Virus record (IMG/VR): IMGVR_UViG_3300021379_001426
Span: 1 to 56,629 of that record
Origin: a virus
DNA length: 56,629 bases
Strand: one strand, 5' to 3'
Both the position numbers and the translations under genes were made by a program. Shown here one piece after another: positions 11,301-28,844 of this stretch. Under the pieces are notes generated by a model, which saw nothing but the letters and a program-made list of their open reading frames with translations, ran no database searches and had not been told where the DNA came from. Within the stretch, counting starts at the first letter, position 1, and each line of letters opens with the position of its first letter.

Positions 11301-11951
11301 GTTGAGGCTGACGTATGGGTAAGGCCGAATGATACGATACACGCAGGTCAATCTCCGGATAAGCGACTGGATTTCATTAAGATAACTCCGCCGCCTATCG
11401 TTCCAACAGTGCCCGTAACTCCAGCAGCTGCACCACCAGTAAGCACTCCAAACAACTTTACTGGCGCTGGCTCTGGTTGTTTCCAAGCTGGAACAAAAAT
11501 TATGTTGCACGACTATAGCTACAAGAATGTAGAAGATATTGAAGTCGGCGATATAGTGATGGGTGCAGAAGGTGTACATAATACTGTTGATGAAGTATAT
11601 GATATTGCTGAAGATCTTCGACCTATGGCTAATGTCAATGGATTGCATCTTACAGATTATCACCCAATACTTACTACAGAAGGTTGGAAAGCAGTTAACC
11701 CTGTAACATCAAATGAGCATCACCCAGATCTAAATGTTGGTCAATTAGAAATAGGTGATGAAATTGTTTCTATCACAGGTCCTGAAAGTTTAGTTGCTTC
11801 TGAGATTGTGGTAAATATTGATAAGTATAATTCTACTGATAAAGTTTACAACTTCAAAGTAGACAATGACAATACTTACACAGCAAACAATTTAGTAGTA
11901 CATAACAAGTTGTTTACATTTAATCGACTCCGCTTAGGACGTTCAACGTAA
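5334..11951 (+). CDS. Giant DUF4815 baseplate/tail protein with Calx-beta repeats and C-terminal Hint domain
   Basis: This is a 2205-residue virion protein. Residues 1 to about 60 carry the DUF4815 signature (PYFDDYDV, then YRILFKPATAVQVREMNQMQ), a family typical of cyanophage structural modules; the large beta-rich body runs to about 1500. Residues about 1515-1715 hold two small Cys-containing modules (each with paired Cys and a YADG/GK-type turn) separated by Pro-rich linkers from about 1563 on. Two Calx-beta domains follow at about 1735-1955 (acidic DDTIDESAETF motif), then another Pro-rich linker. Residues 2049-2191 form a Hint domain starting at Cys2049 (CFQAGTKI), with a TDYHP block and ending in His2190-Asn2191; 14 residues remain after it. 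It sits directly after gp8, where T4 has its gp9/gp10 baseplate genes. The combined architecture suggests a peripheral baseplate or fibre-connecting protein that may be processed near its C-terminus. Confidence 0.85.
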   Translation: MPLSTNLSVAPYFDDYDVNSEYYRILFKPATAVQVREMNQMQAILQNQIEQFGDHIIRSGSILSGCQFDFNYSMPYVKILDKATQGAAVDVLRYTGYFAEGATNGVKAKITHTIAGFEGSDPDLNTLYLNYISGGTNGDVDSFVENEVLRIYSGDDRLHDIIVNDPSSGFSNSDTVIILSAIEVANATNSEGGFSSPFIDGETLVDNVVSPTVRVQIYDTPEDIDEDNSVLLRIKPLDSDMAPSPNATYWENLEEAGTLIGLTSGNEATLTRFRGEGATGKITTSRTGSIASADISTGGIEYDILPFVGIYSTTATTLQVGQLDLQAQDYVTQVRVGTGAQFTDPIGYGFGVKVSEGQIYQKGHFMASDAQFIVASKYSNTPSDLSVGFSTTESITNVFTDSTLYDNARGFSNEGAPGANRLKLTPTLVSRTTTEEESDPAYLPLVKFSEGRPYSLNEMTQYAQLGEMIAQRTYEESGNYTLDPFKIVTRSANDFTDSDESFTYVIDPGHAYVNGYRVKTVQNFAKTVAKGTETKSETAVGQDLDYGNYIIVNNLVGALNFKNADSIELRDTAGTFLDAETPAPSQEGSLVGTARVRSVTYEQGIQGTIEGQYRLYLFDISMNAGKNFKRDVRSIYAVEGSLEAAADLVLSSGNEFVLRTLRSEANQLDENGDIVPLTYTQLAEVKSPLNQSLLISTSKPVVYSGSGLSNIEYTYRTASDDLLIGATGQISVSAQGTATFPYIDTLTTVQRSEVIIIPTDSDVRDTVAFGTSALTVDSAGADSEGNIKLTASSGIFGGLEVGDWFQGAAGKKAQIQAIVGADAVKVKVRTNVADYPGQSSEALYRVHPVNVPVSRFTATCPSPYTSLVIDLGLSGVNGGQISNGATVVYLQKYSNVAEVSMTPRRSRFVRLTTAGAFKGNTPRSLGIPGIFRLRKVYNGTTTSDADITSEFYVDSGQTANYWGLGKLFRTDDASTTLAGTILVEVDYFNPTARGGLKTIDSYPIDDEKTLSELTSNGTVVHNIEVPIISVGSGEIYDLRESLDFRPFVDQTAADITDPTDAGITTDPSDVVAFTGATGLQFPRPEGDVIFDITYNLPRQDEIYVDVDGDFTITSGTTKVANDPNSIMLYRADVPAYPSFPQVQSTQLKEIADVGVINGRETNSIRENKYLVKVNAVASQNEGYTMQEISSLERRIEALENVQNISDLEESVKNRKMPSSIDSSLERYKFGFFVDNFEDFNLSNLSSPEYDASIYEYVLQPSKSTSTLRYKLDKNSQIYANGGQAKFPYKRKTIVNQAYATYGPYVPEPQLPKIRYRDKFTNNRNMKSIGDSTAPYSQLQNVWEEATVVAPTFSDNKQRLIFVRFFVPTGKVGFEIIQSKTPPTAGFESGTVLWSSASSTPTDITPNKYGELYRKNYPVKNSKNIVYSRDINPWALPKASAGQLTFTTDSGSITYNTFTGAYQATAAYNHTQGTYITVRALKGDAVFNFQITYPAITSADPIFDTGANEVNVRPPAKPRGTFLYKKCSGTDLIVYRADGNYGSTKDTVRNSKECGYVEPIIKLPPILPPPVIGSPGGPPAPQPDPPQPEPEPPQPPVTPACPASGTVAKTVCSKTPDKTLTTYVYTGKRSSTTGKCDIRVSESDVNNVEVCRYSPPPPVKPPVCVILPPPVIIRPPPVVCGPMDPPDNDDGCVIIPEPTPPKDPVVVHPPVRPPVIVIPEPPVLPPPKPPVLPPPPANITISDAVIREGETGEVEVYLSRKNRSDTTVNYSMGGGTATAGNDYVAESGTLRIPKGQQTGKISVQALADGVSNEGTQTFNVTISSASQGTITDSVGVVSITDTTSTPIVSIPKSRAINEGGGTLNVPITLSGISASNVTINYQTTSGGATSGSDFTPTSGTATITAGQLTTNISIPITDDTIDESAETFRLNLTGATNATVGSSSCLITIQDNDPTPAPVPPPKPPVKPPVPQPPVLPPPAPSEPIIRTEPVEADVWVRPNDTIHAGQSPDKRLDFIKITPPPIVPTVPVTPAAAPPVSTPNNFTGAGSGCFQAGTKIMLHDYSYKNVEDIEVGDIVMGAEGVHNTVDEVYDIAEDLRPMANVNGLHLTDYHPILTTEGWKAVNPVTSNEHHPDLNVGQLEIGDEIVSITGPESLVASEIVVNIDKYNSTDKVYNFKVDNDNTYTANNLVVHNKLFTFNRLRLGRST
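11478..11909 (+). other. Hint (intein-like) autoprocessing domain within the DUF4815 protein
   Basis: Codons 2049-2191 encode a Hint fold: an N-terminal Cys followed by FQAGTKI, a VEDIEVGDIV strand block, the TDYHPI block B-type motif (with Thr and His), and a C-terminal block ending YTANNLVVHN. The residue after the terminal Asn is Lys2192, not Cys, Ser or Thr, so canonical protein splicing is unlikely. Asn cyclisation would release only a 14-residue tail, and an N-S shift at Cys2049 could cleave or transfer the upstream chain. This is the pattern of bacterial intein-like or Hedgehog-type domains. Confidence 0.82.
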
Positions 11952-14756: not shown

Positions 14757-14947
14757 TGAATGATGGATTGACTAAGGTTGATCAAAATACTTATATAAAT
14801 AATTCAAGTACAGATTATCAAAAATTTAAGCAAGAACGCGAAAAACTAAAACAAGCAAGAGACATGTCGAATAGGATCACTCAATTAGAAACACAGGTGA
14901 CCAAGATTATGACCCTCATAGAAGAACTTAATGCTAGGATCAAATAA
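14756..14947 (+). CDS. Small coiled-coil protein
   Basis: This is a 63-residue protein. Residues about 20-62 are rich in Lys, Glu, Gln and Leu, with a heptad-like pattern (RITQLETQVTKIMTLIEEL) that predicts one long coiled coil. It overlaps the stop of the previous gene by one base (TAATG) and its own stop overlaps the start of the giant fibre gene, so the three are probably translated together. A small trimeric coiled coil next to a fibre gene could be a connector or assembly factor. I do not recognise a named family. Confidence 0.7.
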   Translation: MNDGLTKVDQNTYINNSSTDYQKFKQEREKLKQARDMSNRITQLETQVTKIMTLIEELNARIK

Positions 14948-17900
14948 TGGCGCTACTTTCAGGTTTCGATGAATTAAATTCAGCAAATGCAACATTTAGT
15001 GATTGGTTAACAAAAACCAATGAGCTAATCTTGCTTATGCGAGGTGCAAATACAGCGCCAAGTATTACCTCAGTCATGACGGCTAACTCGCTTCCCGGCG
15101 GTTCAATGACATTTGGAAATGCTACACTATTTGGCCAATTTACTGCTAATACGATGGTCGTATTGAACGATGGTGAAAATGATGGATCAGACGATAATGT
15201 TTTCGCCAATGGTAACTTTGGTGGATTAAGAGGTGGTGTATGGAATAATGCTTCTAATACAATCACTGCTGATACATTATACATCGTTTCCAATACCACG
15301 TACACAGATGAATCAGTTGAGGTCTATGTCGATTCTACTTATGGTCTTATTGTTGAGCAAAATATTGAAGCGCGGCATGATGTCTTATTTGTAGGTAACG
15401 GTGGTTCTAACACAAATCCAAAGATGCATTGGGAAGATGCAGACAATATTCTTAGTTTCAATAACAACGTAAGAGCTGTCTTTGGTAAGAACGCAGGCTC
15501 AGAAGTTGTAGGCGGTACAGGACAAGCAGAATTCTTATTTGTTGATGCAGATAATCGAATGTATGTCAACACGGAGAATATGAACATCCGTGCAAATACT
15601 GACGTCAACTTTATCACAGACAACTTTGAGCTGAAGTCAGATATAGGCTCAGAACTTTATATCTCAGCTGACGTTGCAGATAACAGCACAGTCAAGCTAT
15701 ACTATGAAGGTAACGAAAGACTCGCCACGAACACACATGGTATTGTAGTCACAGGCGATGCCATTGTACAAGACGATCTTGTTATGTTTGATGGTGGCCG
15801 AATCATGATGGGTAACACATATCCATATGACGGCACACAGGATATTGCATCATATAACTTTCAAATTTATACAGACGGCACTGACGGTATTATTGTATCT
15901 GGTGACAAAGATCTCAATATCTTTGTTCATGAAGGATTCAATCTTACAAATGAACCCGGCACGATAAACTTCATCACAGCTAATAACGATGGCTCAAGCG
16001 AAGTTGTTCTTTATAATAACGGTACTGCTCGCCTCGAAACAACCGGTGCACAGGCTGGTGAAGTTCCGGGTGTAGAAATCTTTGGTGAAGCGAATACGAC
16101 TACATTGCGTGTACGTCAAGATGCAAACTTTGACAACGATACTTTAAACTCGAACAGTGTTCATTGGGATGCAACAAACGAAGTATGGAATTACCGTGAT
16201 TCAGTTAAAGCCACATTCGGTGATAGCGATGACTGGGAGATGTTCTATACTGCTGCAGGTCGTGCATACTCTAATACAGATAATCAAGATATTCGAGCCA
16301 GAACTGATCTAAATGTTATTTCCAACATTGTGGAAATGAAATCAGAGACAGGCGGCGAATTGTATATCTCAGCAGATGTTGCTGACAATAGCACTGTCAA
16401 ACTTTACTACGAAGGTAACGTAAGACTATCTACAAATACACATGGTATTGAAGTTGATGGCGATGTTGTAGTAAAAGATAATACTGTCATCTTCGACAAT
16501 AACAAGCTGTTGATGGGTGGCACATATCCATATACCGGCGGCGAAGCAATCGCCGATTATAATTTCCAAATTTACACTGACGGAACCGATGGTATTATTG
16601 TTTCTGGTGATAAAGATCTAAACATCTTTGTACACGAAGGATTCAATCTTACTAACGAGCCCGGCACTGTTAGCTTTATTACTGCTAATAATGACGGATC
16701 AAGTGAAGTTGTACTATACAATAATGGTACAGCAAGATTAGAAACGACTGGTTCACAAGTCGGTGAAGTGCCCGGCGTAGAGATTCATGGTGAAGCCAAC
16801 ACTGATACACTACGTGTTGAAGGCGATGTTCGCTTCGATGGTTCTACAGACGGTATAACAACAACACTCAATGCTAACAACATCGAATGGACATCATTGT
16901 CAAATACAATGAACTTCGATGATAACACATATCTTGAGTTTGGTACATCTGGCGACTTTAAGATTCACCACGATGGATCTCACACATATATGCAAGACAC
17001 TGCCGGCGTCGGTAATGTCTACTTAGATACAAATACCTTCATTGTTAGAAATGCAGCTGGCAACGAAAATCTAATTCGTGCGATTCAAGATGATGGCGTA
17101 ACTCTTTACTTTAATAATAGTCAGCGATTAGATACTACAAACCTTGGTGTTGACATTGAAGGCGAAGCAAACACCGATACATTGCGTGTTCAAGCCAACG
17201 CAACGTTTGAGTCAGATGCAATTAGTCCAAACGAAGCTGCGTTAGAGTGGAATTCGGCATCGCGAGTACTTGATTGGAATGATAATGCTCGAGCAAGATT
17301 TGGTAATGGTGTAGATCTACAGATCTGGCATAGTAGCGCAGATAATAGTTCATATATTGCAGAATCTGGTGCTGGTAATCTGAACATATCAGGTACTAAC
17401 ATCAACATCGAAGCTCAAGACGGTAGCAATTATATTACAGCAGTCGACGATGGTAGCGTTAGTATTTTCTTTGCCGGCGACGGCGTCAGCGATAACGGTA
17501 ATATTGCACGACTGACTACAACAGACATCGGTGTTGATATTGAAGGTGAGGCCAATACTGATACACTTCGAGTACAAGGCGACGTTGCAATTGAAGATGG
17601 TACTGGTACTGTAGAAGTTACATGGGATGCATCCAATAGCAGAATGAATTTTGTGGACGAAGCAAGATTACGTTTTGGTGATAGTGCAGACCTACAAATA
17701 TGGCACAGCGGTACAGCATCATGGATAGCAGATTCAGGAACAGGCAACCTATTCATCGAAGGTACAAACTTAGTACTAAGAGCTACCGATGATACACGTT
17801 ATCTTGTAGGTACCGATGGAACTGGCGTAGAAATTTATTCACCTGACGATAGTGTTGCATTAACTGCAAATAACAATCAGATTCACATCACCGATCTCGC

Positions 17901-20835
17901 TAATACAAATACATTGCGAGTACGTGGTACGTCATTGTTTGAGAATGATATCAGTATCGAAGGTTCTGATAGTAACGAAGCGCTAGATTGGGATAAGTCA
18001 GCGAATACATTAAACTTTAATGATGATAACTATGCTACATTCGGTACAAGTAGCGATCTACAGCTTTATCACGATGGCACAAACTCGTTTATCAAAGAAC
18101 AAGGTACTGGTCAACTAAACATTGATGGTAGTGTTGTAGCGATTCGTGATGTCAGCGATGGTACAACGATTGCCAAATTTACCGATGGTGCTGGTGCTGA
18201 TATTTCTTACAACGGCACAGTACGAATGTCAACAGATGACGGCGGTATTACTGTTACAGGTAATACAGTTGCTGATGGTTTTGTTGCAGGTGATAATGAG
18301 AAGTTACAACTCGGTAATGCTCAAGATTTAGAGCTGTATCATGACGCTTCTGATTCACGAATTGATAATAAAACCGGTAATCTTGTAATTAGAAACGCTT
18401 CCAATGATGCTGACGTAATTATTCAAACAGATGATGGTTCAGGTTCCCAAGCAGTATATTTCCAAGCAGATGGTAGTACAGGATCAGTTAAACTTTTCCA
18501 TTATGGTGCAACGAAATTAACAACAACTAGTATTGGTGTTGATCTTGAAGGCCAAGCAAACACAGATACACTACGAGTGCAATCTACCTCTGACTTCGAA
18601 GGTAGTATTAACATTCAAGGTTCTAATGATACTGATACTCTCACTTGGACCAAGTCATCCAATACTCTTAACTTCGACGACAATAACTTTGCTACATTCG
18701 GCAATGATTCTGATCTTTCTATCTACCACGATGGAGATCATTCATTCATCTCCGATACCGGTACAGGCGCATTACGAGTACTTTCAAACGACATTATCTT
18801 TAAAGATTCGGCGAATACTGAAACAATGGCGCGCTTTGTACAAAATGGTGCTGTTACACTCTACTTTGATAATTCACAGAAATTTATTACTACCAATACA
18901 GGTGCTACACTTACTGGCACATTAATTGCCGATGGTGTTACTGTTGGTGACAATGAGATTATTCAACTTGGTACAACCATGCAGTTGTACAATGACGGCT
19001 CAACATCTTATATTAACGAAACTGGTAGCGGATCATTAACTGTACAAGCAAATAATCTTATTTTAGAAGATACAGGTGGCGATGATTTCGTTACAGGTGT
19101 AGCAGGTGGTACTGTTAGACTCTATTATGCTGGTGCATATAAGTTAGAAACAGATCTCGCAGGTGTAAATGTAAATGGTTCATTGGATGTATCATCGGCT
19201 CTAACAGTTGGTGGTGTTACTAGTCTCGAAAACGATATTGATATTCAAGGTTCTACGGGCGCAGACACTCTTACGTGGGATAAGTCAGCCAACACATTAA
19301 ACTTTGACGATAACAACTTTGCGACATTTGGTACCGGCGCTGACATGTCTTTGTATCACAATGGTACAAATTCATTTATTGAAAACACTACTGGTGAGTT
19401 GTTTGTAAAAGCAGATGGTCTCACATTACGAAGTACAACGAACGAAGATTATCTAACCGCTGATTTAGACGGTGGCGTTACACTGTACTTCAATAATTCG
19501 GAGAAACTTGCAACCACTAATACAGGCGCAACACTTACAGGTACATTGATTGCCGACGGTGTTACAGTTGGTGATGACGAAATCATTCAGCTTGGTACAA
19601 CCATGCAGCTGTACAATGATGGTGCTAACTCATACATTACCGAATCTGGTTCAGGCAATTTTAACTTACAGGCAAACAGTGTTGCATTAGAAAATACTGA
19701 TGGTGGTAACTACTTCACCGGTGTAGCCAATGGCGCTGCTATCATGTATCATGCCGGCACAGCGCGTGTATCAACTACATCATCTGGTGCAAGTATCACT
19801 GGAGCTCTTGGCGTAACGACAAATCTGACAGTAACAGGTTCAACATCACTCAATGGTACAGTCGATCTTGGTAATGCCGCTAGCGACAATATTGACTTCA
19901 ATGGTCGCGTAAGAACTAGTATTGTACCAAACGCGAACAATACGCGTGATCTTGGTTCGTCCACCCTCGTATGGAATGACATCTATAGTGGCGGCGCATT
20001 TAGTGGAAATAATGGTACATTTACCGGCGACCTTACAGTTTCAGGCAATACGGCAATTACCGGTAACACTTCAGCATCACACTTTATTGGCAACGGTTCA
20101 CAGCTTACTGATCTAAATGGCACCGCAATTACTACCGGCACTGTTGACGCTGCTAGAATTGATGCTGAGCTTACATCGAATACGAGTGGTACAGCTGCTA
20201 CTGCTACACAGCCGGCTGTTACCGACTCATCCACTGATACTGACTTTAGAGTAACCTTTGCATCTAATACCGGCCAATTCCGTGATTTGTATGCTGATTC
20301 TACATTCTTATATAATCCAGCTGACAATGCATTATATGTCGACAACTTAATTGTCAATACGGAGATTACTCTACCAGATAATATTACAGCGCAAACAGTA
20401 TCCGCTGTAGATTTCAGTGTATCCAATACGGCCACAATATTAAATCTTGAAGTGACCTCGCTTGAAGCGAACGGCGTGGCATTTACCGGTACGGGTGGTG
20501 ATGTTACAACAACAGCATCTACGATGATCGATAGCTTCCCAATTGAACAAACACGTGGATATAAGTATTTTGTACACGGTGAAGTCACTAACGACGATAC
20601 AAAAGGATACGCTGTTGAAATCAACGTTATTACTACTGACACTGGCGCCGATACAAAGATTTTCTACACTCGATATGGTGAAGTTGAAAATGGTATGGGC
20701 ACGGTAGAAGTTGTTCCAGAGCTAGCAAGTAATAACACGCACATTGATTTGATGGCGACATGTCCTGCAGCTACAGCTTCTGCAATTCACAGATTTAACG
20801 TACTTAAGATAGAAACTAGGGATAATGGTGTATAA
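14947..20835 (+). CDS. Giant repeat tail fibre protein
   Basis: This 1962-residue fibre protein is built from degenerate modules of about 100-150 residues. A module typically reads: duplex near LxWxxSxNTLNFDDN, then ATFGxxxDLxLYHDGTxSFI, then a VTLYFNNSxKLxTT block and GVDIEGEANTDTLRVQ. Two modules (around residues 235-390 and 475-625) are nearly identical in protein over more than 100 residues but differ at many silent sites. The C-terminal 120 residues are non-repetitive and may hold the tip or a trimerisation domain. Similar Tyr-His-Asp-Gly repeats occur in marine phage tail fibres. Likely role: long host-recognition fibre. No Cys-rich or enzymatic motif was seen. It starts and ends in one-base TAATG overlaps. 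Confidence 0.85.
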   Translation: MALLSGFDELNSANATFSDWLTKTNELILLMRGANTAPSITSVMTANSLPGGSMTFGNATLFGQFTANTMVVLNDGENDGSDDNVFANGNFGGLRGGVWNNASNTITADTLYIVSNTTYTDESVEVYVDSTYGLIVEQNIEARHDVLFVGNGGSNTNPKMHWEDADNILSFNNNVRAVFGKNAGSEVVGGTGQAEFLFVDADNRMYVNTENMNIRANTDVNFITDNFELKSDIGSELYISADVADNSTVKLYYEGNERLATNTHGIVVTGDAIVQDDLVMFDGGRIMMGNTYPYDGTQDIASYNFQIYTDGTDGIIVSGDKDLNIFVHEGFNLTNEPGTINFITANNDGSSEVVLYNNGTARLETTGAQAGEVPGVEIFGEANTTTLRVRQDANFDNDTLNSNSVHWDATNEVWNYRDSVKATFGDSDDWEMFYTAAGRAYSNTDNQDIRARTDLNVISNIVEMKSETGGELYISADVADNSTVKLYYEGNVRLSTNTHGIEVDGDVVVKDNTVIFDNNKLLMGGTYPYTGGEAIADYNFQIYTDGTDGIIVSGDKDLNIFVHEGFNLTNEPGTVSFITANNDGSSEVVLYNNGTARLETTGSQVGEVPGVEIHGEANTDTLRVEGDVRFDGSTDGITTTLNANNIEWTSLSNTMNFDDNTYLEFGTSGDFKIHHDGSHTYMQDTAGVGNVYLDTNTFIVRNAAGNENLIRAIQDDGVTLYFNNSQRLDTTNLGVDIEGEANTDTLRVQANATFESDAISPNEAALEWNSASRVLDWNDNARARFGNGVDLQIWHSSADNSSYIAESGAGNLNISGTNINIEAQDGSNYITAVDDGSVSIFFAGDGVSDNGNIARLTTTDIGVDIEGEANTDTLRVQGDVAIEDGTGTVEVTWDASNSRMNFVDEARLRFGDSADLQIWHSGTASWIADSGTGNLFIEGTNLVLRATDDTRYLVGTDGTGVEIYSPDDSVALTANNNQIHITDLANTNTLRVRGTSLFENDISIEGSDSNEALDWDKSANTLNFNDDNYATFGTSSDLQLYHDGTNSFIKEQGTGQLNIDGSVVAIRDVSDGTTIAKFTDGAGADISYNGTVRMSTDDGGITVTGNTVADGFVAGDNEKLQLGNAQDLELYHDASDSRIDNKTGNLVIRNASNDADVIIQTDDGSGSQAVYFQADGSTGSVKLFHYGATKLTTTSIGVDLEGQANTDTLRVQSTSDFEGSINIQGSNDTDTLTWTKSSNTLNFDDNNFATFGNDSDLSIYHDGDHSFISDTGTGALRVLSNDIIFKDSANTETMARFVQNGAVTLYFDNSQKFITTNTGATLTGTLIADGVTVGDNEIIQLGTTMQLYNDGSTSYINETGSGSLTVQANNLILEDTGGDDFVTGVAGGTVRLYYAGAYKLETDLAGVNVNGSLDVSSALTVGGVTSLENDIDIQGSTGADTLTWDKSANTLNFDDNNFATFGTGADMSLYHNGTNSFIENTTGELFVKADGLTLRSTTNEDYLTADLDGGVTLYFNNSEKLATTNTGATLTGTLIADGVTVGDDEIIQLGTTMQLYNDGANSYITESGSGNFNLQANSVALENTDGGNYFTGVANGAAIMYHAGTARVSTTSSGASITGALGVTTNLTVTGSTSLNGTVDLGNAASDNIDFNGRVRTSIVPNANNTRDLGSSTLVWNDIYSGGAFSGNNGTFTGDLTVSGNTAITGNTSASHFIGNGSQLTDLNGTAITTGTVDAARIDAELTSNTSGTAATATQPAVTDSSTDTDFRVTFASNTGQFRDLYADSTFLYNPADNALYVDNLIVNTEITLPDNITAQTVSAVDFSVSNTATILNLEVTSLEANGVAFTGTGGDVTTTASTMIDSFPIEQTRGYKYFVHGEVTNDDTKGYAVEINVITTDTGADTKIFYTRYGEVENGMGTVEVVPELASNNTHIDLMATCPAATASAIHRFNVLKIETRDNGV

Positions 20836-21242
20836 TGGCAAACGCAATATACGATAAATACAAAGAAGAAATATTGACGACTGCAACAAATACTAACTTG
20901 TTGACAGAAACGGTGAAAGTGTCTCTTGTAAATTCAGATATCACATTATTTGATAGTACTGACGAATTCTATAGCGACTTAAATTCTACTGGTGGTATTC
21001 TTTCAACTGTAACTCTTGCGAATAAAACACTCGTAGATGGTGTTTTAAATGCAGACGATCTTGTTTTTTCAAGCGTTACAGGTGCAGAGTCTGAAGCACT
21101 ATTGATATGGATAGATACCGGAGTCACAACTACATCGCGGCTGGTTTGTTGGTTAGACACCAATATCACTGGTTTTCCTATTACGCCTGACGGTTCTAAT
21201 ATAGATATTACATGGAGCAGTTCAGGTATTTTTAAACTATAA
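20835..21242 (+). CDS. Small conserved phage tail/structural protein
   Basis: This 135-residue protein belongs to a family I recognise from many tailed phages: the start MANAIYDKYKEEIL, the central VKVSLVNSD, then TLANKTLVDGVLNADDLVFS, and the end IDITWSSSGIFKL. Members lie among tail-fibre and baseplate genes and are thought to be virion components, but their exact role is not known to me. It begins inside the stop codon of the giant fibre gene (TAATG) and is followed 10 bases later by another fibre-associated gene, so it is part of the same transcript. No signal peptide or transmembrane segment is visible. Confidence 0.75.
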   Translation: MANAIYDKYKEEILTTATNTNLLTETVKVSLVNSDITLFDSTDEFYSDLNSTGGILSTVTLANKTLVDGVLNADDLVFSSVTGAESEALLIWIDTGVTTTSRLVCWLDTNITGFPITPDGSNIDITWSSSGIFKL

Positions 21243-21252
21243 GAGAAGATAG

Positions 21253-22407
21253 ATGGCAACTTCACAGAAATTTGATGCGTTAGATGGATTAGAAGTCACA
21301 GGTCAAATGACCGTGGGGGCAAATCTTGCCGTTGATTCAGATACTCTTTTTGTAGATAGTGTCAATGATCGTGTTGGCATCAACGATTCAACACCATCAT
21401 ATCCGCTTGATGTAAATGGCAATGCACAAGTTACAGGTGGCATATACGTTGGCACTAATATTACTCACATCGGCGACGCCGATACCACGATCGGATTTAC
21501 GACAAATCAAATTGATATTACTGCTGGTAACGTAAATGTTGCTCGAGCCAATACTACTGTGCTATCAATTCAAGCCGGCTCAGGTATTGCAGTTAGAGAT
21601 GTAACCGGCGGAGCCGCTGCTTCAGAGTTTCAATCTAATTCTAGTAAACCAAACGGCTCAATTGGGGCTAACTTCGTATATACACATGTTGTAGAAGCCG
21701 CTGGTGAGAAAGCATCCGGTGGAAGTGCAATCGTATTAGGTCAAATTGACTATACTGGTTCGGGTACTTGGTCAAATACAAGCTCAGACAATATTAAATT
21801 TGTTCTAGGTGGTGCCGATAATTATAATTTTTCGACGACCAACGCCAATTTTTACAACAATAATCTAATCAATGTTACTGATATCACTGTAGCAAATAGT
21901 ATTAGTCATGTCGGCGATAATAATACTTATTTCCAATTTAATTCTAATGATTCGGCCCGTATTGTTACTAACGGATCCCAGAGATTTGTAGCAAATAATA
22001 GTGGTGTATTCGTATCAGGCGCTTTAGATGTATCGACAGATATTACGGCTCGACGGCTTACTGTCGAAGATTATTTTATTGAAACTACTTCAACCGCTCC
22101 GGGCGGTACCGCTGTTACAATTGATTGTAACGTAGGATCAGTTGTTGAATTTACTCCATCAGGAGCATATTCAGTAGACTTTACCAACTTACCGACAAAT
22201 GGAACATCAGCATTCACATTGGTTATAAATAATAATGGAACTGCTAGAGAAGCAACATGGCCGGGCTCTGGAGAAGATGATGCAATATATTGGGCTGAAA
22301 GCGTTGAGCCACCAGCATCAGCAGGTTACGACATATATAATTTTATTGTGATTAATGGCAAAATTTATGGTTCGCTTTCAATCCGCAATGCTGGTTGGGC
22401 ACAATAA
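21253..22407 (+). CDS. Tail fibre-like structural protein with conserved C-terminal beta domain
   Basis: This 384-residue protein has an N-terminal fibre-like region (residues about 10-270) with repeated DVNGNAQVTGGIYVGTNITH-type beta strands related to the giant fibre upstream. The C-terminal 115 residues form a separate domain: VEFTPSGAYSVDFTNLP, then LVINNNGTAREATWPG, then IYWAESVEPP and a closing SLSIRNAGWAQ. A related C-terminal domain closes the protein at 34331-34969. In phages such domains often cap fibres or bind the host. A GA-rich site (AAGAGAAGAT) precedes the start. Function is inferred as a fibre or fibre-tip protein. Confidence 0.72.
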   Translation: MATSQKFDALDGLEVTGQMTVGANLAVDSDTLFVDSVNDRVGINDSTPSYPLDVNGNAQVTGGIYVGTNITHIGDADTTIGFTTNQIDITAGNVNVARANTTVLSIQAGSGIAVRDVTGGAAASEFQSNSSKPNGSIGANFVYTHVVEAAGEKASGGSAIVLGQIDYTGSGTWSNTSSDNIKFVLGGADNYNFSTTNANFYNNNLINVTDITVANSISHVGDNNTYFQFNSNDSARIVTNGSQRFVANNSGVFVSGALDVSTDITARRLTVEDYFIETTSTAPGGTAVTIDCNVGSVVEFTPSGAYSVDFTNLPTNGTSAFTLVINNNGTAREATWPGSGEDDAIYWAESVEPPASAGYDIYNFIVINGKIYGSLSIRNAGWAQ

Positions 22408-22424: not shown

Positions 22425-25346
22425 ATGCCAGTAGGTGGCGGTAAGGGTTTTATTGATAAAACCTGGGCACAAACATTTGATGAAACACGATTCAAAGATG
22501 CTGCGTCAGGTACAACTGATGCAACTCCTATTTCTGTGCCTTATGGAAAGCAAGTAATTGAAATTACTGCAAGGGGTGGAGCCGCTAGCGCGCCAATACT
22601 AGATCCTGCATATTCAATTACAAAGAACGCTTATACAACGTCAAACATTACTTCGTATCCTTCGCGTACTTTCTTTAAGGATGTATATACAACTCAGATC
22701 AATACCTCGTATCCAACAAGAACATTCTTTAAAGATTCATATACGTTATCTACAATATATCCAGCTAGGAATACTTTTGAGAATGCTTATACTACTGTAG
22801 CATATACGCAGTATCCATCGCGTGTGCAAAAGAATGCATATAATACTGTACAATTCACTGCATATCCTGCTGACGTTGCGAAGAATGCCTATACCACTCA
22901 GGTAAACACTGCTTATCCTGCTGACGTTCAAAAGAATGCTTATTCTACTGTAGCATATACACAATATCCAACCAGATTTAATAAAGCCGCTTATAATACC
23001 GTACAGTATACGCAATATCCAATTAGATACGCTAAGTCAGCTTATACTACTGTAGCATATACGCAGTATCCACAGCGAAACCAAAAAAATGCTTATACGA
23101 CTGTAGCATATACGCAGTATCCTGCTCGTACTCAGAAAGCCGCATATAATACACAGGTCAATACGGCTTATGGTGCCGACGTTCAAAAGAATGCTTATAC
23201 GACTGTAGCATACACGCAATATCCTATTCGATATTCTAAGGCCGCATATACTACATCGACCATCACTAACTATCCTGCTCGTACATCAAAAGCAGCATAT
23301 TCTACAGTAACTAATACTGCATACGGCGCTGACGTGGAAAAGAATGCATATTCTACGGTAACTAATACTGCATACGGCGCTGACGTGGAAAAGAATGCAT
23401 ATAATACTGTGCAGTATACACAATATCCAGCTGATGTAGCAAAGAATGCATATAACACCGTAGCATATACACAATATCCTGCACGATTTACTAAGGCTGC
23501 ATACAATACATCGTCCACCACTAACTATCCCGCGCGGTTTAACAAGGCTGCATACAATACATCAGTCACCACTAATTATCCTGCACGGTTTAATAAAGCC
23601 GCGTATAACACATCAGCTACCACTAACTATCCTGCACGGTTTAATAAAGCTGCGTATAACACATCAGCCATTACTAACTATCCTGCTGATGTTCAAAAGA
23701 ATGCTTATTCTACTGTAACATATTTGTTCTACAACTCTGAAGTTCAGAAATTTTCATATTCGACATCTGTCGTAACGTCATATCCAGCTCGTACTCAAAA
23801 AGCTGCTTACTCTTTCCAGCAATATCAACTAAGTTCGAGTAACCAAACTTATGTTCTGACAGGATTTGTTTCAGGACCAACGCGTTGGCAAAAATCAGCA
23901 TATAATGCGACTGTCACCACACAGTATCCAGCAAGATTTAATAAAGGTAGTTATAATTTAGCAGTAAATACAGATTATCCTGCACGGTTTAATAAGGCTG
24001 CATATTCTACAGTAACCAATACCGCATATGGTGCTGATGTAGCAAAGAATGCTTATTCTACAGTAGTCAATACTGCTTATCCAGCAGCCGTAGCAAAGAA
24101 TGCTTATTCTACTGTACAAACAACAGCATATGGTGCTGATGTAGCAAAGAATGCTTATTCTACAGTAGTCAATACCGCATATACTGCCGACCAAGAGAAA
24201 GCAGCTTATACTACTCAGGTAAACACTGCTTATCCTGCTCGATTTAATAAAAGTGCGTATACAACTCAGGTTAATACGGCTTATCCTGCACGGTTTAATA
24301 AAGCCGCGTATAACACATCAGCTACCACTAACTATCCTGCACGGTTTAATAAAGCTGCGTATAACACATCACAAACAACTAACTACCCAGAACGGTTCCA
24401 AAAAGCTGCTTATTCTACTGTACAAAATACGCAATATCCAGCTGATGTACAAAAGAATGCTTATACTACTCAGGTTAATACTTCATATCCTATTCGATAT
24501 AGTAAAGCTGCTTATAATACTGTACAATATACACAGTATCCACAGAGATTTGCAAAAGGAGCATACACCACTCAGGTAAACACTGCTTATCCGCAGCGAT
24601 TCCAAAAGTCAGCGTATACAACTCAGGTCAATACTTCATATCCTCAGCGTGTGCAGAAAAATGCATACACAACTCAGGTTAATACTGCATACGGTGCTGA
24701 TGTACAAAAGAATGCCTATACTACACAGGTCAATACCTCATACCCAACAAGATTTAATAAAGCTGCTTATTCTACTGTAGCATACACACAATATCCAACC
24801 AGATTTAATAAAGCTGCTTATAATACACAGGTAAATACGGCATTTCCACAGAGATTTAATGCTGCATATACAACTCAGATCAATACCTCGTATCCAACAA
24901 GATCATTCTTTAAAGATTCATATACATTATCTACGATATATCCTGCAAGAAATACTTTCGAGAATGCATATACAACAGTAGCATATACACAATATCCATC
25001 GCGTACATTCTTTGAGAATGCATATTCTACTATACAATATACACAATATCCATCTCGTATAACTAACTATCCGGATAGAGTTACAGCTGGTACTGCTGGA
25101 ACCGATAGTGTTGTTTCATGGGTAACAGCAGACGGTTATTCTGTATCGTTTACTGCTGCCGGTGCACAACCAAATATCACAAACTATGTAATTCGCACAG
25201 CTCAGACTTCAAACAGAAAGATATTTGATCCAACTAAAGTCGATGGTGTAGATGGAACACAACTTAATGTTTCCGTAGGTAACTCGCCAGCAGGTAACAA
25301 TACAGCAGCTAATAGAGGGTTTATAAATATAAAGTACACTGGTTAA
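22425..25346 (+). CDS. Tyr-rich 16-residue-repeat virion protein (novel type)
   Basis: This 973-residue protein has about 60 unique N-terminal residues, then about 47 units (residues about 60-885) of a 16-residue repeat with consensus K-N/A-A-Y-T/N/S-T-x-x-x-T-x-Y-P-A-R/D-F/V, and a unique beta-rich C-terminal domain of about 85 residues. Each unit has two Tyr about eight residues apart; the second is usually followed by Pro, sometimes by Gly. One unit (about residue 470) is degenerate. No Cys was noticed in the repeat region. I do not recognise the family. The pattern fits a regular beta-solenoid or extended fibre, and the Tyr-Pro and Lys-Ala-Tyr composition superficially recalls mussel adhesive proteins. 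The gene lies among fibre genes and directly before the oxygenase cassette. AAAGGA precedes the start. Confidence 0.8.
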   Translation: MPVGGGKGFIDKTWAQTFDETRFKDAASGTTDATPISVPYGKQVIEITARGGAASAPILDPAYSITKNAYTTSNITSYPSRTFFKDVYTTQINTSYPTRTFFKDSYTLSTIYPARNTFENAYTTVAYTQYPSRVQKNAYNTVQFTAYPADVAKNAYTTQVNTAYPADVQKNAYSTVAYTQYPTRFNKAAYNTVQYTQYPIRYAKSAYTTVAYTQYPQRNQKNAYTTVAYTQYPARTQKAAYNTQVNTAYGADVQKNAYTTVAYTQYPIRYSKAAYTTSTITNYPARTSKAAYSTVTNTAYGADVEKNAYSTVTNTAYGADVEKNAYNTVQYTQYPADVAKNAYNTVAYTQYPARFTKAAYNTSSTTNYPARFNKAAYNTSVTTNYPARFNKAAYNTSATTNYPARFNKAAYNTSAITNYPADVQKNAYSTVTYLFYNSEVQKFSYSTSVVTSYPARTQKAAYSFQQYQLSSSNQTYVLTGFVSGPTRWQKSAYNATVTTQYPARFNKGSYNLAVNTDYPARFNKAAYSTVTNTAYGADVAKNAYSTVVNTAYPAAVAKNAYSTVQTTAYGADVAKNAYSTVVNTAYTADQEKAAYTTQVNTAYPARFNKSAYTTQVNTAYPARFNKAAYNTSATTNYPARFNKAAYNTSQTTNYPERFQKAAYSTVQNTQYPADVQKNAYTTQVNTSYPIRYSKAAYNTVQYTQYPQRFAKGAYTTQVNTAYPQRFQKSAYTTQVNTSYPQRVQKNAYTTQVNTAYGADVQKNAYTTQVNTSYPTRFNKAAYSTVAYTQYPTRFNKAAYNTQVNTAFPQRFNAAYTTQINTSYPTRSFFKDSYTLSTIYPARNTFENAYTTVAYTQYPSRTFFENAYSTIQYTQYPSRITNYPDRVTAGTAGTDSVVSWVTADGYSVSFTAAGAQPNITNYVIRTAQTSNRKIFDPTKVDGVDGTQLNVSVGNSPAGNNTAANRGFINIKYTG
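22688..22823 (+). repeat. Left copy of a 136-bp module that brackets the Tyr-rich repeat array
   Basis: This block encodes the atypical repeat units containing TFFKDSYTLSTIYPARNTFE. A second copy of the same length lies at 24869-25004 near the other end of the array. The first 60 bases of the two copies differ at one position that I could see; the later part differs mostly at silent sites. Confidence 0.8.
24869..25004 (+). repeat. Right copy of the 136-bp bracketing module
   Basis: This is the partner of 22688-22823. The encoded peptide is the same apart from Thr to Ser in the TFF/SFF segment. The two copies enclose almost the whole array of ordinary 16-residue units, so the array has similar start and end modules. 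Confidence 0.8.
25322..25329 (+). promoter_or_regulatory. Late promoter octamer TATAAATA before the oxygenase cassette
   Basis: An exact T4-type late octamer lies within the last codons of the Tyr-rich repeat gene, 39 bases before the first oxygenase start. A transcript from here would carry a GAGG ribosome site (25358-25361) seven bases before that start. Because the octamer also encodes an INIK-region peptide, chance occurrence is possible. Confidence 0.6.
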
Positions 25347-25368: not shown

Positions 25369-25929
25369 ATGTTATTAGCTCCATCCACGGAACTTTCTCG
25401 TTTCGTAATTGTCGATAATCTTGTTGACACCGTAGATAAAATACGATTCTTTGAGAAGATTATCGGTTTTCAACCTAGAGATCCAGAAAGCGAATTTGCA
25501 TGTGATTTAGGATATCTAGAATCAGACATGAATACAAATAAAATTGTGTATGATCCCTTTCATTCTCTTATCTCTACAATAAATTATGAAGCTTTTTTGT
25601 ATGATATAGAATCTCTTGAAAAATTCATGTACGCTCGACTTACTTCAACTGCTCAAGATCATATCAAACCTCATCGTGAAATACGATTATCTGGCTATAG
25701 AAAACAAGATCGTAAGATTACGATGCTTAGCTGTCTATCAAATAATAACGAATATGAAGGTGGCGAATTAAAAATTGATATCGATGGAACTCTGCAACCG
25801 CAAATTATAAATTTAAAGGCCGGCCAAACGGTATTCTTTGATTCACATGTTACATGGGGAATAGAACCAGTGACGAGTGGCGAAGCAAGATTTCTATTGA
25901 ACAATGCATGGGGTAAATCACAACTATGA
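25369..25929 (+). CDS. 2-oxoglutarate-Fe(II) oxygenase, prolyl hydroxylase-like (PKHD type)
   Basis: This 186-residue protein has the double-stranded beta-helix core of 2OG-Fe(II) dioxygenases. Proposed iron ligands are His102 and Glu104 (PHRE) and distal His160 (FFDSHVTWGI); Arg174 (GEARF) would bind 2-oxoglutarate. EYEGGEL at 128-134 is a hallmark of the prolyl 4-hydroxylase-like PKHD family. The first motif is HxE rather than the commoner HxD. Such enzymes hydroxylate peptide, amino-acid or other substrates using 2OG and O2. The gene opens a five-gene overlapping cassette, its stop overlapping the next start (ATGA). The neighbours suggest a virion-protein substrate, but none is shown by sequence. 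Confidence 0.8.
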   Translation: MLLAPSTELSRFVIVDNLVDTVDKIRFFEKIIGFQPRDPESEFACDLGYLESDMNTNKIVYDPFHSLISTINYEAFLYDIESLEKFMYARLTSTAQDHIKPHREIRLSGYRKQDRKITMLSCLSNNNEYEGGELKIDIDGTLQPQIINLKAGQTVFFDSHVTWGIEPVTSGEARFLLNNAWGKSQL

Positions 25930-26636
25930 TTTTTAATAATGATCCCGGTCTAGAGTTTTATACATCAGAGCATTTATATGGCGCACTCATTGAACCATCT
26001 AGAATGCAAAAGCATGTGCCAGAATGGTTTAAGAAAATACCTGTTACAAAAAATATTCGTGATCAAGGTGGGTTCCCATTATTTACGGCTAAAAAATGTT
26101 TACCTATGCTAGATGCTATGACTCTTGGTTGGGTGATTCCATTACAAAGTGATGTACATGTAATTACAAATGACGATTGTTCTATAATTCAGGCTGCAGG
26201 AAGAGAAGGCAATCAAATACAAGCCGTACAAGGCCACGCGTGGGATCAAATTGCATCTGAAAAATGGCCGGGCTTTAAACAAGATCCGTTGAAGTTTATT
26301 AATCATTGGCGAATCAAAACTAAACCCGGCTGGTCATGTTTATTTCAAGCAATGCCAAATTCAGTGCAATCTGATTTTACATGTTTGAGTGGTGTTGTTG
26401 ATACCGACACATATATGAATACTATTAATTTTCCAGCTGTTTGGAATACGCCAAATGCAGATATAACTTTAAAAGCAGGTACGCCATTAGTGCAAGTTAT
26501 TCCATTCAAAAGAAATAAGATGGATGCTAAAATCAGAACAGCTACAGATCGCGAAGAAAGAAAAAGAGATATACTTGAAAAGGCGCAAGGAACAAGAACG
26601 GGCGTATACACTCAAGAATTAAGAGAAGTTAGATAA
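25926..26636 (+). CDS. DUF6065-like protein, copy 1
   Basis: This 236-residue protein resembles the DUF6065 group: an N-terminal FYTSEHL and a Pro-Glu-Trp motif (VPEWFKKIP), a middle hydrophobic LGWVIPLQ, then a core of HWRIKTKPGWSCLFQAMPN, LSGVVDTDTYMNTINFPAVW and KAGTPLVQVIPFKR. DUF6065 proteins occur in phages and bacteria, and I am not aware of a proven function; a small jelly-roll or cupin-like fold is plausible. The C-terminus is charged and probably helical. The next gene encodes a paralogue. Both are embedded between two oxygenase genes with four-base or one-base overlaps, so they probably act in the same process. Confidence 0.65.
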   Translation: MIFNNDPGLEFYTSEHLYGALIEPSRMQKHVPEWFKKIPVTKNIRDQGGFPLFTAKKCLPMLDAMTLGWVIPLQSDVHVITNDDCSIIQAAGREGNQIQAVQGHAWDQIASEKWPGFKQDPLKFINHWRIKTKPGWSCLFQAMPNSVQSDFTCLSGVVDTDTYMNTINFPAVWNTPNADITLKAGTPLVQVIPFKRNKMDAKIRTATDREERKRDILEKAQGTRTGVYTQELREVR

Positions 26637-27415
26637 TGTGGAAAAAGAATCATAATGAAGAGTTCGTCTTTAATGATATGTGGGGTTCTGTTTGGGGAAC
26701 ATGGCCGATTGTAGCAGCAAATAAATTTAAAGCGCCGTATGAAAGTTTTCAAAGAGAAAAATATGGGCGACCACATCTTGTAGATTGTCCCGGCATGTAC
26801 GACTATAAAAATCAAGGCTGGTTAATGCTAGCTTGGTGTGAAATTGAAGTGCATTGTGATGGAAAAAATACCATGATGTATTATGGCCATCGAGATAAAG
26901 GTGAATGGCCAACCCCTGTTAATCAAGAATGTCCATATAAGCTTGATCACAATAAACACATCGACGAGCAATGGATAAAAAGTGCATCTGGCATGTCAGA
27001 AAAAATAGCCCATGGTATCGCCGAGCATCGAGACAGCAATCCTACACCAATGCATATTAGTACGCCATGGGCAATAATTAATAAAGGCTGTTCGCTAATG
27101 GTTCAGCCTCCTGTATATCATAGTAATATTTCAGAAGACTTTTATGTATATCCCGGCATAGTTGATTATGAGAATGGATTTTCTACAATGAATTTTATAT
27201 TCTCATGTAAAAAAGAAGGTAAGTTTACAATTAAACCGGGTACTCCTATTTTACATATGATACCTATGATTAAAAGAGATTGGAAGGCATACTATACACA
27301 CGATAGTTTAGGTGAAACAAAATTCTATACTGGTGCGCTGTCTAATGCTAAACAATTTTATAGAAAAATGGTACATAGAAGAAACAGATTTACGATTGAT
27401 CGGTGGGATAAATGA
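26636..27415 (+). CDS. DUF6065-like protein, copy 2
   Basis: This 259-residue paralogue of the preceding protein shares the same order of motifs: a tryptophan-rich middle part, then STPWAIINKGCSLMVQPPVY, VYPGIVDYENGFSTMNFIFS and KPGTPILHMIPMIKRDW. Its N-terminal 90 residues are more divergent, and it carries extra Cys, His and Trp residues (for example HCDGKNTMMYYGHRDKGEW) that could bind a metal or ligand. The start overlaps the previous stop (TAATG) and the end overlaps the next start (ATGA). Function is unknown; its place in the oxygenase cassette suggests a partner or related enzyme. Confidence 0.6.
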   Translation: MWKKNHNEEFVFNDMWGSVWGTWPIVAANKFKAPYESFQREKYGRPHLVDCPGMYDYKNQGWLMLAWCEIEVHCDGKNTMMYYGHRDKGEWPTPVNQECPYKLDHNKHIDEQWIKSASGMSEKIAHGIAEHRDSNPTPMHISTPWAIINKGCSLMVQPPVYHSNISEDFYVYPGIVDYENGFSTMNFIFSCKKEGKFTIKPGTPILHMIPMIKRDWKAYYTHDSLGETKFYTGALSNAKQFYRKMVHRRNRFTIDRWDK

Positions 27416-28227
27416 TAAACACAGAAGCTCTAGAAGAAATTAAAATTGCTACAAGCTTTAATGATAGACCGTATCTAATTAAAAACTTTACTTCATTTCC
27501 TGACCAATTTTTAAATCATATGTATTTTTATGAATGTTTCGGTGAATGTAATTATTATGATTGTCATGTATTGCCTATTATGGAATGGGGTGATACAGCG
27601 TCGTCACTAAAGATATCATTTAATGATCTTGCTTATAAAAATAAAAAGAAAGACATAGATGAGAATGGCGTGCAAAATTATAAGTCGCGACAAAGAATGG
27701 AAGGGATGGGTAGGAAACGTCCATTAGATTATTTAAAAGATAAGAACACGCTTAGAATTTATAATTATGAAAAATATAATAATCTATCGCGTGATATGAG
27801 TAATGCTTTATTAGACACCTTTACACTCGATGTAGATATCTTTGGGGTGTGGCCGGCGTTTGTAACACCAGAAAAAGGTGCTGCGCATGCGACTTTCATA
27901 AAAGAGAATGAAATATCTGGTCATCCTCGAGGTGAAAATTATAATTCATTTTACTTACAAACAGTAGGCACATCAGAGTTTGTCATATACAAAAATCGTG
28001 TCAGTGGTTTAGTTGATAAGAATCTACCATTTGACTGGACAAAAGAAAAACGAGTAATATTTTTTGATAATCTTGAAGTCGAAGAAACCATAGAAGTAAA
28101 CCCAGGCGACTTACTATACATACCTGAAAGAAAAATGTTTTATGAAAAAGGTGTGGAAGAAAGAATGCATATTAATTTTCCTCTAATATACAAAGGACCT
28201 CAGTCGAGTTATAATCCAACATTATGA
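27412..28227 (+). CDS. Cupin-like protein of the oxygenase cassette
   Basis: This protein has 271 residues. The C-terminal half has cupin or JmjC-like features: a SGHPRGENYNSFYLQTVG strand region, an EFVIY strand, then VEETIEVNPGDLLYIPERKM and RMHINFPLIYKG. The 'PGDLLYIP' turn is typical of cupins. A complete HxD...H iron triad is not obvious, so catalytic activity is uncertain; His189-region and His-in-MHINF are candidates. The N-terminal half is helical and charged and unlike any family I know. Overlaps of four bases on both sides place it firmly inside the cassette. It could be a third oxygenase or a substrate-binding partner. Confidence 0.5.
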   Translation: MINTEALEEIKIATSFNDRPYLIKNFTSFPDQFLNHMYFYECFGECNYYDCHVLPIMEWGDTASSLKISFNDLAYKNKKKDIDENGVQNYKSRQRMEGMGRKRPLDYLKDKNTLRIYNYEKYNNLSRDMSNALLDTFTLDVDIFGVWPAFVTPEKGAAHATFIKENEISGHPRGENYNSFYLQTVGTSEFVIYKNRVSGLVDKNLPFDWTKEKRVIFFDNLEVEETIEVNPGDLLYIPERKMFYEKGVEERMHINFPLIYKGPQSSYNPTL

Positions 28228-28844
28228 TAGAAGTAGAAGACATTTTCATTGAAAGTATTTTTAAAGAAGTATATGACGATATAAATCATCAAGAAATACA
28301 CGACTATATAAACTTTCTTATGAGTAGAGAAGAGAAAGGTGTAGTCATTTCTAATAAAGGTGGGTGGCAATATCATGTTCAACGCGATGAGTGTGAAGCT
28401 ATAGATTATTTGAATGATAGACTGCATGCCACGGCCCATCAAATTTTATATGAGTATTATAGCTTTGATATGAAGAATATGGTCAGCGCTGGTATATGGA
28501 TTAATGTAAATAATTCCGGTGATTATAACGTAAATCATAATCACGCCGGCTCCGTGCTATCTAGTTGTTATTATTTACAGGCGCCTGAACCTTCAGCCCA
28601 TATTGAATTTGAACCAAATGATCAATTGTCTAGAACAATATTGAGAAACGAACTCGAAAAAGGTGGATCTGAATTTTTAGGAGATGATAATCCTCGTATT
28701 AGAATGGGCGCGGGCAAAGCACCACAAGAACGGGAAGCATACTTTTTTACAGGACATCTGTCACATCGAGTTGATATAAATAATTCAGTCGAGCCTAGAA
28801 TTTCACTCGCGGCTAATTTCTGTTCGAGCGCAGCTCGCTCTTAG
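28224..28844 (+). CDS. 2OG-Fe(II) oxygenase of the TIGR02466/2OG-FeII_Oxy_5 type
   Basis: This 206-residue protein carries the signature of this oxygenase family: WINVNNSGDYNVNHNHAGS at about 92-110, followed by SSCYYLQAP, then FTGHLSHRV (about 175-183) and EPRISLAANF (about 190-199). Candidate iron ligands are among His105, His107 and His181, with Arg192 for 2-oxoglutarate. Members are common in marine phages and bacteria; their substrates are largely unknown. The gene closes the five-gene cassette: it overlaps the previous gene by four bases and is followed directly by a late promoter. It is only distantly related to the oxygenase at the front of the cassette. Confidence 0.82.
   Translation: MIEVEDIFIESIFKEVYDDINHQEIHDYINFLMSREEKGVVISNKGGWQYHVQRDECEAIDYLNDRLHATAHQILYEYYSFDMKNMVSAGIWINVNNSGDYNVNHNHAGSVLSSCYYLQAPEPSAHIEFEPNDQLSRTILRNELEKGGSEFLGDDNPRIRMGAGKAPQEREAYFFTGHLSHRVDINNSVEPRISLAANFCSSAARS

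What the first reader, a model, noticed from the sequence alone, without database searches (positions are those of the whole stretch)
22425..25346. Tyr-rich protein made of about 47 sixteen-residue repeats
The repeat K-N/A-A-Y-T-T-x-x-x-T-x-Y-P-A-R/D-F is strikingly regular: two Tyr per unit about eight residues apart, Pro after the second, and Lys before the first. I recognise no known fibre repeat with this pattern. It could be a new beta-solenoid or extended adhesive. The Tyr-Pro/Lys composition recalls mussel foot proteins, but that is analogy only.
Basis: partly seen in the sequence, partly recalled or inferred. Interest (0 to 1): 0.85.

Follow-up and report, generated by a model that had tools for sequence, protein, structure and literature searches.

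The report
Phage fibre protein zipped like hairpin
A marine phage carries a long tyrosine-rich protein, probably part of its host-binding tail fibre, whose 46 repeats form two equal arms that appear to pair with each other in mirror order, rather like the two sides of an RNA hairpin, a layout I could not match to any known repeat protein.

Summary
The repeat is real: ORF 22425-25346 (973 aa) holds 46 full units plus two half units. The period is 17 residues, not 16. No Pfam, PDB or INPHARED match covers the repeats. IMG/VR holds eight further distinct members, all in one syntenic fibre locus, with units of 14 to 18 residues between conserved N and C caps.

The array is not a linear solenoid. 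A central irregular segment splits it into two arms of equal unit number (window 23/23, L009 20/20). Unit types covary only in mirror order, unit i with unit N+1-i. In the window 19 of 19 typed pairs are cognate, and the mutual-information z is 8.2 at mirror offset 0, against at most 2.4 at any other offset. L009 and L025 show the same. Half-length layers also sit opposite complementary half layers. There is no nucleotide inverted repeat. AlphaFold folds only the two caps, and predicts a low-confidence beta-hairpin at the array centre.

Best reading: a tail-fibre adhesin shaped as a hairpin. The caps close the base, complementary antiparallel strand layers zip the stem, and the variable centre is the tip. 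The pairing is well supported by sequence; the fold and receptor role are inferred.

The parts
22425..25346 (+). YP-repeat protein, 973 aa
   Evidence: ORF; homologous in eight further IMG/VR loci
22425..22604 (+). N cap, residues 1-60 (WAxTF..PYGKQIIEIxARGG), beta strands
   Evidence: conserved in 9 of 9 family members; AlphaFold pLDDT about 62-82 over residues 21-60
22605..22622 (+). N-side half layer PAYSIT (first half of a unit)
   Evidence: sequence; mirrors the C-side half layer ITNYPDR
22623..23792 (+). arm 1: 23 units, residues 67-456
23793..23891 (+). central irregular segment, residues 457-489, putative tip and turn
   Evidence: least repetitive point at residue 476, array centre 473; AlphaFold strands 464-471 and 474-481 at low confidence
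23892..25058 (+). arm 2: 23 units, residues 490-878, in mirror register with arm 1
25059..25079 (+). C-side half layer ITNYPDR (second half of a unit)
   Evidence: sequence
25080..25343 (+). C cap, residues 886-973, ends FINIKYTG, beta strands
   Evidence: 61% identical to L009; AlphaFold pLDDT 56-88 by ten-residue block
21253..22407 (+). short fibre-like protein directly upstream
   Evidence: phrog_18345 tail fibre and phrog_5906; a counterpart upstream in all 9 loci
20835..21242 (+). phrog_644 protein
   Evidence: a counterpart in all 9 loci
14947..20835 (+). large fibre / virion structural protein
   Evidence: phrog_19195, phrog_8745 and others
25369..25929 (+). 2OG-Fe(II) oxygenase-like protein, metal triad degenerate
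   Evidence: PF13640 1e-7; HxD is HRE and the distal His is Trp
25926..26636 (+). DUF6065 protein
   Evidence: PF19541 3e-12; phrog_7084
26636..27415 (+). second DUF6065-like protein
   Evidence: phrog_7084 1e-16
27412..28227 (+). JmjC-like protein
   Evidence: phrog_8014 3e-13; PF08007 below cut-off
28224..28844 (+). 2OG-Fe(II) oxygenase
   Evidence: PF13759 1e-15

Best explanation
It is a tail-fibre-associated adhesin built as one long hairpin. Inferred from the model: the N and C caps fold together into a beta domain that closes the base. Shown by sequence: the array is two arms of equal unit number around one central irregular segment, and unit i of arm 1 is matched in type to unit N+1-i of arm 2. 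Inferred: each unit is a beta strand with a Tyr at each end; a strand from the outgoing arm and one from the returning arm pair antiparallel to make one layer; complementary strand types zip the stem; the variable centre is the receptor-contacting tip. Equal arm lengths follow because both arms must start and end at the same base. The pairing itself I hold at about 0.85, the receptor role at about 0.6.
For: Equal arms: 23 and 23 in the window; 20 and 20 in L009, although its units are 15 residues in arm 1 and 14 in arm 2. Objective self-similarity puts the least repetitive point at 0-6% of array length from the centre in 8 of 9 members (Fisher P 7.5e-6 over seven representatives, exploratory). 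Mirror covariation: mutual information z 8.2 (window, all 23 layers), 7.6 (inner 20), 6.6 (L009) at mirror offset 0; every other mirror or direct offset is at or below 2.4. Type pairing: 19 of 19 typed window pairs cognate (VxYTQ with QxNTx; SxTTN with VxNTx), against at most 11 in any other circular shift or in direct order, and 0 of 100,000 run-preserving surrogates. L009 17 of 20 opposite, best of 40 arrangements (surrogate P 0.001). L025, with a quite different 18-aa repeat, 10 of 10 opposite (P 0.008). Half layers: AY-halves face YP-halves in L011 (16 of 16 layers in class register, P 1e-5), L022, L023 and L027. L023 has two more layers than L022 in both arms. Antiparallel register: half with complementary half, and the strongest coupled columns are 11 with 5, the register that puts Tyr4 opposite Tyr12. 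No reverse-complement signal in the DNA. AlphaFold: both caps fold with useful confidence; the only strands predicted in the stem end are 464-471 and 474-481, turning at about 473. Locus: fibre genes upstream in all 9; phages P-SSM7 and S-CAM22 have a Gly-rich protein directly after a short fibre gene sharing an N-terminal domain.
Against: AlphaFold gives no structure for the arms (pLDDT about 28; shallow alignment, monomer only). L016 has unequal arms (11 and 14 layers). L021 was too irregular to parse. In L022 the least repetitive point lies 14% off centre. L011 pairs mostly like with like, so complementarity of type is not universal. Layer tables and type classes were defined after seeing the data, though the offset scans serve as internal controls. 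No virion, binding or structural experiment exists.
Confidence: 0.66

Rival explanations
2. Linear beta-solenoid or extended repeat fibre.
For: Regular short units with alternating polar residues; low-confidence models leave it open.
Against: It predicts no mirror covariation and no equality of arms; direct-order and shifted comparisons are null.
Confidence: 0.07
3. Mussel-like adhesive: Tyr/Pro/Lys-rich disordered protein, hydroxylated by the neighbouring 2OG oxygenases, that sticks virions to cells.
For: A PF13640-like oxygenase lies directly downstream in all 9 loci; composition 11.9% Tyr.
Against: The window's own copy has lost HxD and the distal His, although a second oxygenase remains at 28224-28844. 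Disorder does not predict layer-by-layer matching of two distant arms.
Confidence: 0.06
4. Neutral tandem expansion or an mRNA stem-loop shaped the array.
For: Tandem arrays arise easily; mirror order is the order of an RNA stem.
Against: Reverse-complement pairing of mirror units is at chance (P 0.60 and 0.84). 48% of identical residues use different codons. Direct DNA duplication gives direct order, and inversion would lose the reading frame sense.
Confidence: 0.03

Closest known systems
Salmonella phage S16 gp38 tail-fibre adhesin (PDB 6F45, polyglycine sandwich)
   Same: A folded base from which segments run out and back along the fibre axis, with variable loops at the far end proposed to bind the receptor (PMC6851490).
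   Different: Stem made of ten glycine-rich PGII helices; here one single hairpin of 46 Tyr-rich units with no Gly-rich motif and no sequence match.
Cyanophage Pam3 gp24 tail fibre (TNF-like plus glycine-rich domain)
   Same: Beta-sandwich base, repetitive stem, hypervariable tip proposed to recognise the host (PMC9608196). The cap model's very weak fold hits include a RANKL/OPG complex chain of the TNF family (3urf, E 1.7).
   Different: Stem is 12 glycine-rich motifs, in a trimer; no homology detected here.
Gly-rich proteins of P-SSM7 and S-CAM22, and the hafunavirus adhesin
   Same: Gene order: directly after a short fibre gene; the DUF6065 gene lies close to the Gly-rich gene in HF1, and in that virus family the Gly-rich adhesin gene is implicated as the host-range determinant (PMC8651126).
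   Different: Caps do not match by profile (hhalign probability 0.5%).
T4 gp37 receptor-binding needle (own knowledge)
   Same: Chain runs to the tip and back as extended antiparallel strands.
   Different: Trimer with iron ions, no tandem repeat, no mirror type code; not tested here.

Membership tests
gp38-type Gly-rich adhesin (PF21722 / polyglycine sandwich) | Glycine-rich motifs forming PGII helices | tested here: not met
   28 Gly in 973 residues and no run of Gly in the arms; no PF21722 hit to any family member
gp38-type Gly-rich adhesin (PF21722 / polyglycine sandwich) | Homologous base domain | tested here: not met
   hhalign of N caps with Gly-rich N regions: probability 0.5%; shallow profiles
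gp38-type Gly-rich adhesin (PF21722 / polyglycine sandwich) | Gene at the end of the fibre locus | tested here: met
   Same position after a short fibre gene in P-SSM7 and S-CAM22; only a domain is shared
gp38-type Gly-rich adhesin (PF21722 / polyglycine sandwich) | Binds the host receptor | not testable with these tools
   needs experiment
Linear beta-solenoid repeats | Match to a known solenoid family | tested here: not met
   no Pfam or PDB match
Linear beta-solenoid repeats | Contacts only between successive units | tested here: inconclusive
   mirror covariation argues for distant contacts; no structure
Mussel foot protein-like adhesive | Hydroxyproline and DOPA modification | not testable with these tools
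   adjacent oxygenase degenerate in the window, HxD present in the others

The most novel reading that the evidence does not exclude
A protein stem-loop with a strand-pairing code: successive beta strands of one arm select their partners in the other arm by complementary types, and the stem evolves by compensatory insertion of layers in both arms, as base-paired stems do in RNA.
Probability: 0.55. Interest if true: 0.9.

Novelty: new variant of a known kind. Interest (0 to 1): 0.8.

Why it matters
Rules by which beta strands choose partners are hard to read from natural sequences. Here one protein family lays out tens of strand pairs in register, with two to four discrete types and natural compensatory changes, so a pairing code can be read and tested directly. 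It would also be a new stem design for phage adhesins, alongside polyglycine and beta-helical stems.

Tried and rejected
tblastn of the protein and two relatives against 50,697 phage records gave nothing, but BLAST masks low complexity, so this is weak evidence of absence. A genome-contig scan with L022 found none. PHROGs hits to the repeats were sub-domain chance. The S-CAM8 hit (E 8) was not a relative. MAFFT of overlapping unit windows aligned them on their overlap rather than by repeat register, so that set was not used for a model. Foldseek of the full model gave only weak jelly-roll hits, none below E 0.1. Homology of the caps to Gly-rich proteins was not supported, nor homology of the phrog_644 protein to its P-SSM7 neighbour. 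An automatic token parser for half layers failed, so those tables were parsed by hand and checked against the sequence. Literature searches found no tyrosine-rich phage tail repeat and nothing on DUF6065.

Full report
Observation. The window is a 56,629-base IMG/VR virus record with portal, terminase, tail sheath, neck and baseplate genes of a contractile-tailed phage. ORF 22425-25346 encodes 973 residues. The repeat period is 17 residues, 51 bp. Self-identity at lag 17 is 0.458; the largest value at any lag in 1000 shuffles is 0.136. The consensus is K-[NA]-A-Y-[NTS]-T-x-x-x-T-x-Y-P-x-[RD]-x-x. Units share 56% of residues on average but use different codons for 48% of the identical ones, so they are old copies kept by selection.

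Relatives. Seven scans of IMG/VR (whole protein; DNA pattern of the repeat; cap alignments; downstream oxygenase) found eight further distinct members: L009 (three contigs; L004 and L005 are the same protein), L011, L016, L021, L022, L023, L025 (and L026) and L027. The contig behind L001 is a near-identical relative of the window itself (99.95%). All nine lie in one gene order: a large fibre gene, a phrog_644-like gene, a short fibre-like gene, the repeat protein, a 2OG-Fe(II) oxygenase-like gene. The N cap and C cap are conserved (61% C-cap identity with L009), while the repeat between them has unit lengths of 14, 15, 16, 17 or 18 residues and different motifs. L025 carries QxxYSYNQPYPF and PVTxVFRLTPYPF units in place of the AY..YPxR units.

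Two equal arms. Split at the YPxR anchors, the window array is 23 units, an irregular stretch of about 31-33 residues (457-489), and 23 units, with one half unit at each outer end. L009 is 20, irregular, 20, with 15-residue units in the first arm and 14-residue units in the second. A self-similarity profile, which knows nothing of units, places the least repetitive point within 6% of the array centre in 8 of 9 members, and at 14% in L022.

Mirror pairing. I first asked whether mirror-paired units resemble each other. They do not; they are less alike than random pairs. Looking at the pairs shows why: they are complementary. In the window, VxYTQ strands face QxNTx strands (12 pairs) and SxTTN strands face VxNTx strands (7 pairs), with no violation among typed pairs. 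In L009, QNQT[ND] faces SV[VI]TN. Mutual information between arms gives z 8.2 for the window and 6.6 for L009 at mirror offset 0 and nothing comparable at other mirror or direct offsets. All circular shifts of both orders are worse (19 against at most 11; 17 against at most 15), and surrogates that keep the run structure give P below 1e-5 and 0.001. In L025, with another repeat altogether, 10 of 10 layers are opposite in type (P 0.008). In L023 the central Tyr is present on one side of 8 of 9 layers and never on both, and strands ending YEG[TA] face strands starting PD[VL]T in three layers in a row.

Half layers. Some layers hold only the first half of a unit (AYxxx) or only the second (xxxYPxR). 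In L011 the class order (full, short, half) of 16 layers is identical on both arms (P 1e-5), and each second half faces a first half, one of these pairs being somewhat irregular. L022, L023 and L027 match in 11, 13 and 11 layers. A first half naturally faces a second half if the two strands run antiparallel. The strongest coupled columns in the window, 11 with 5, fit the same register, with Tyr4 opposite Tyr12. L023 differs from L022 by two layers present in both arms. L016 is the exception, with 11 layers against 14.

Alternatives to protein pairing. Mirror order is also what an mRNA stem would give, but reverse-complement pairing between mirror units is at chance in both proteins. Direct duplication of DNA gives direct order, not mirror order. 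An antiparallel homodimer would give the same covariation and cannot be excluded by sequence; the irregular centre and its predicted turn favour the hairpin.

Structure. With nine rows AlphaFold folds the N cap (residues about 20-60) and the C cap (about 885-973) with useful confidence and leaves the arms at pLDDT about 28. That the two caps form one domain is my inference from strand content and from both being confident in one model; no inter-domain error was reported. A second run on residues 357-591 is low confidence throughout but its only strands are 464-471 and 474-481, a turn at the array centre. Foldseek finds no match below E 0.1.

Function. The position at the end of the fibre genes, the variable centre and the parallel with Gly-rich adhesins suggest a receptor-contacting tip protein. 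In P-SSM7 and S-CAM22 a Gly-rich protein follows a short fibre gene, which in P-SSM7 shares an N-terminal domain with the short fibre gene of this family. The DUF6065 gene downstream has relatives near the Gly-rich gene of halovirus HF1, and in that group the Gly-rich adhesin gene is implicated in host range (PMC8651126). Known Gly-rich adhesins share the plan of a folded base, repetitive stem and variable tip (PMC6851490, PMC9608196). Sequence homology of the caps to them was tested and not found. Function therefore rests on analogy and locus: it may work like those adhesins, but it is not filed as a member of their family.

The neighbouring oxygenase. It is next door in all nine loci, but the window copy reads HRE for HxD and Trp for the distal His. 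Modification of the repeats is possible but not shown, and this enzyme is unlikely to do it in this phage.

Limits. Types and layer tables were read after the pattern was noticed; the offset and surrogate controls partly guard against this. The nine members are few and some are close relatives (L022, L023, L027). No experiment exists.

Noticed in passing
window 25369-25929: 2OG-Fe(II) oxygenase-like protein with a degenerate metal triad (HRE for HxD, Trp for the distal His), while the three aligned relatives keep it.
   Followed up: partly
window 25926-27415: Two adjacent DUF6065 / phrog_7084 genes; relatives occur throughout the haloviruses and lie near the Gly-rich adhesin gene in HF1.
   Followed up: partly
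window 27412-28844: A JmjC-like gene and a second 2OG oxygenase follow, so the fibre locus carries up to three oxygenase-type genes.
   Followed up: no
window 49614-50753: Tail-fibre ORF with collagen-like GPQ repeats.
   Followed up: no
window 10071-10116: Short 21-bp repeat rich in Pro and Gln codons inside the ORF 5334-11951.
   Followed up: no
L016:4642-6312: Family member with unequal arms (11 and 14 layers), the only clear exception to equal arms.
   Followed up: partly
L032:493-4527: Another phage with a Gly-rich fibre protein followed by a DUF6065-like gene and several oxygenase-like genes.
   Followed up: no
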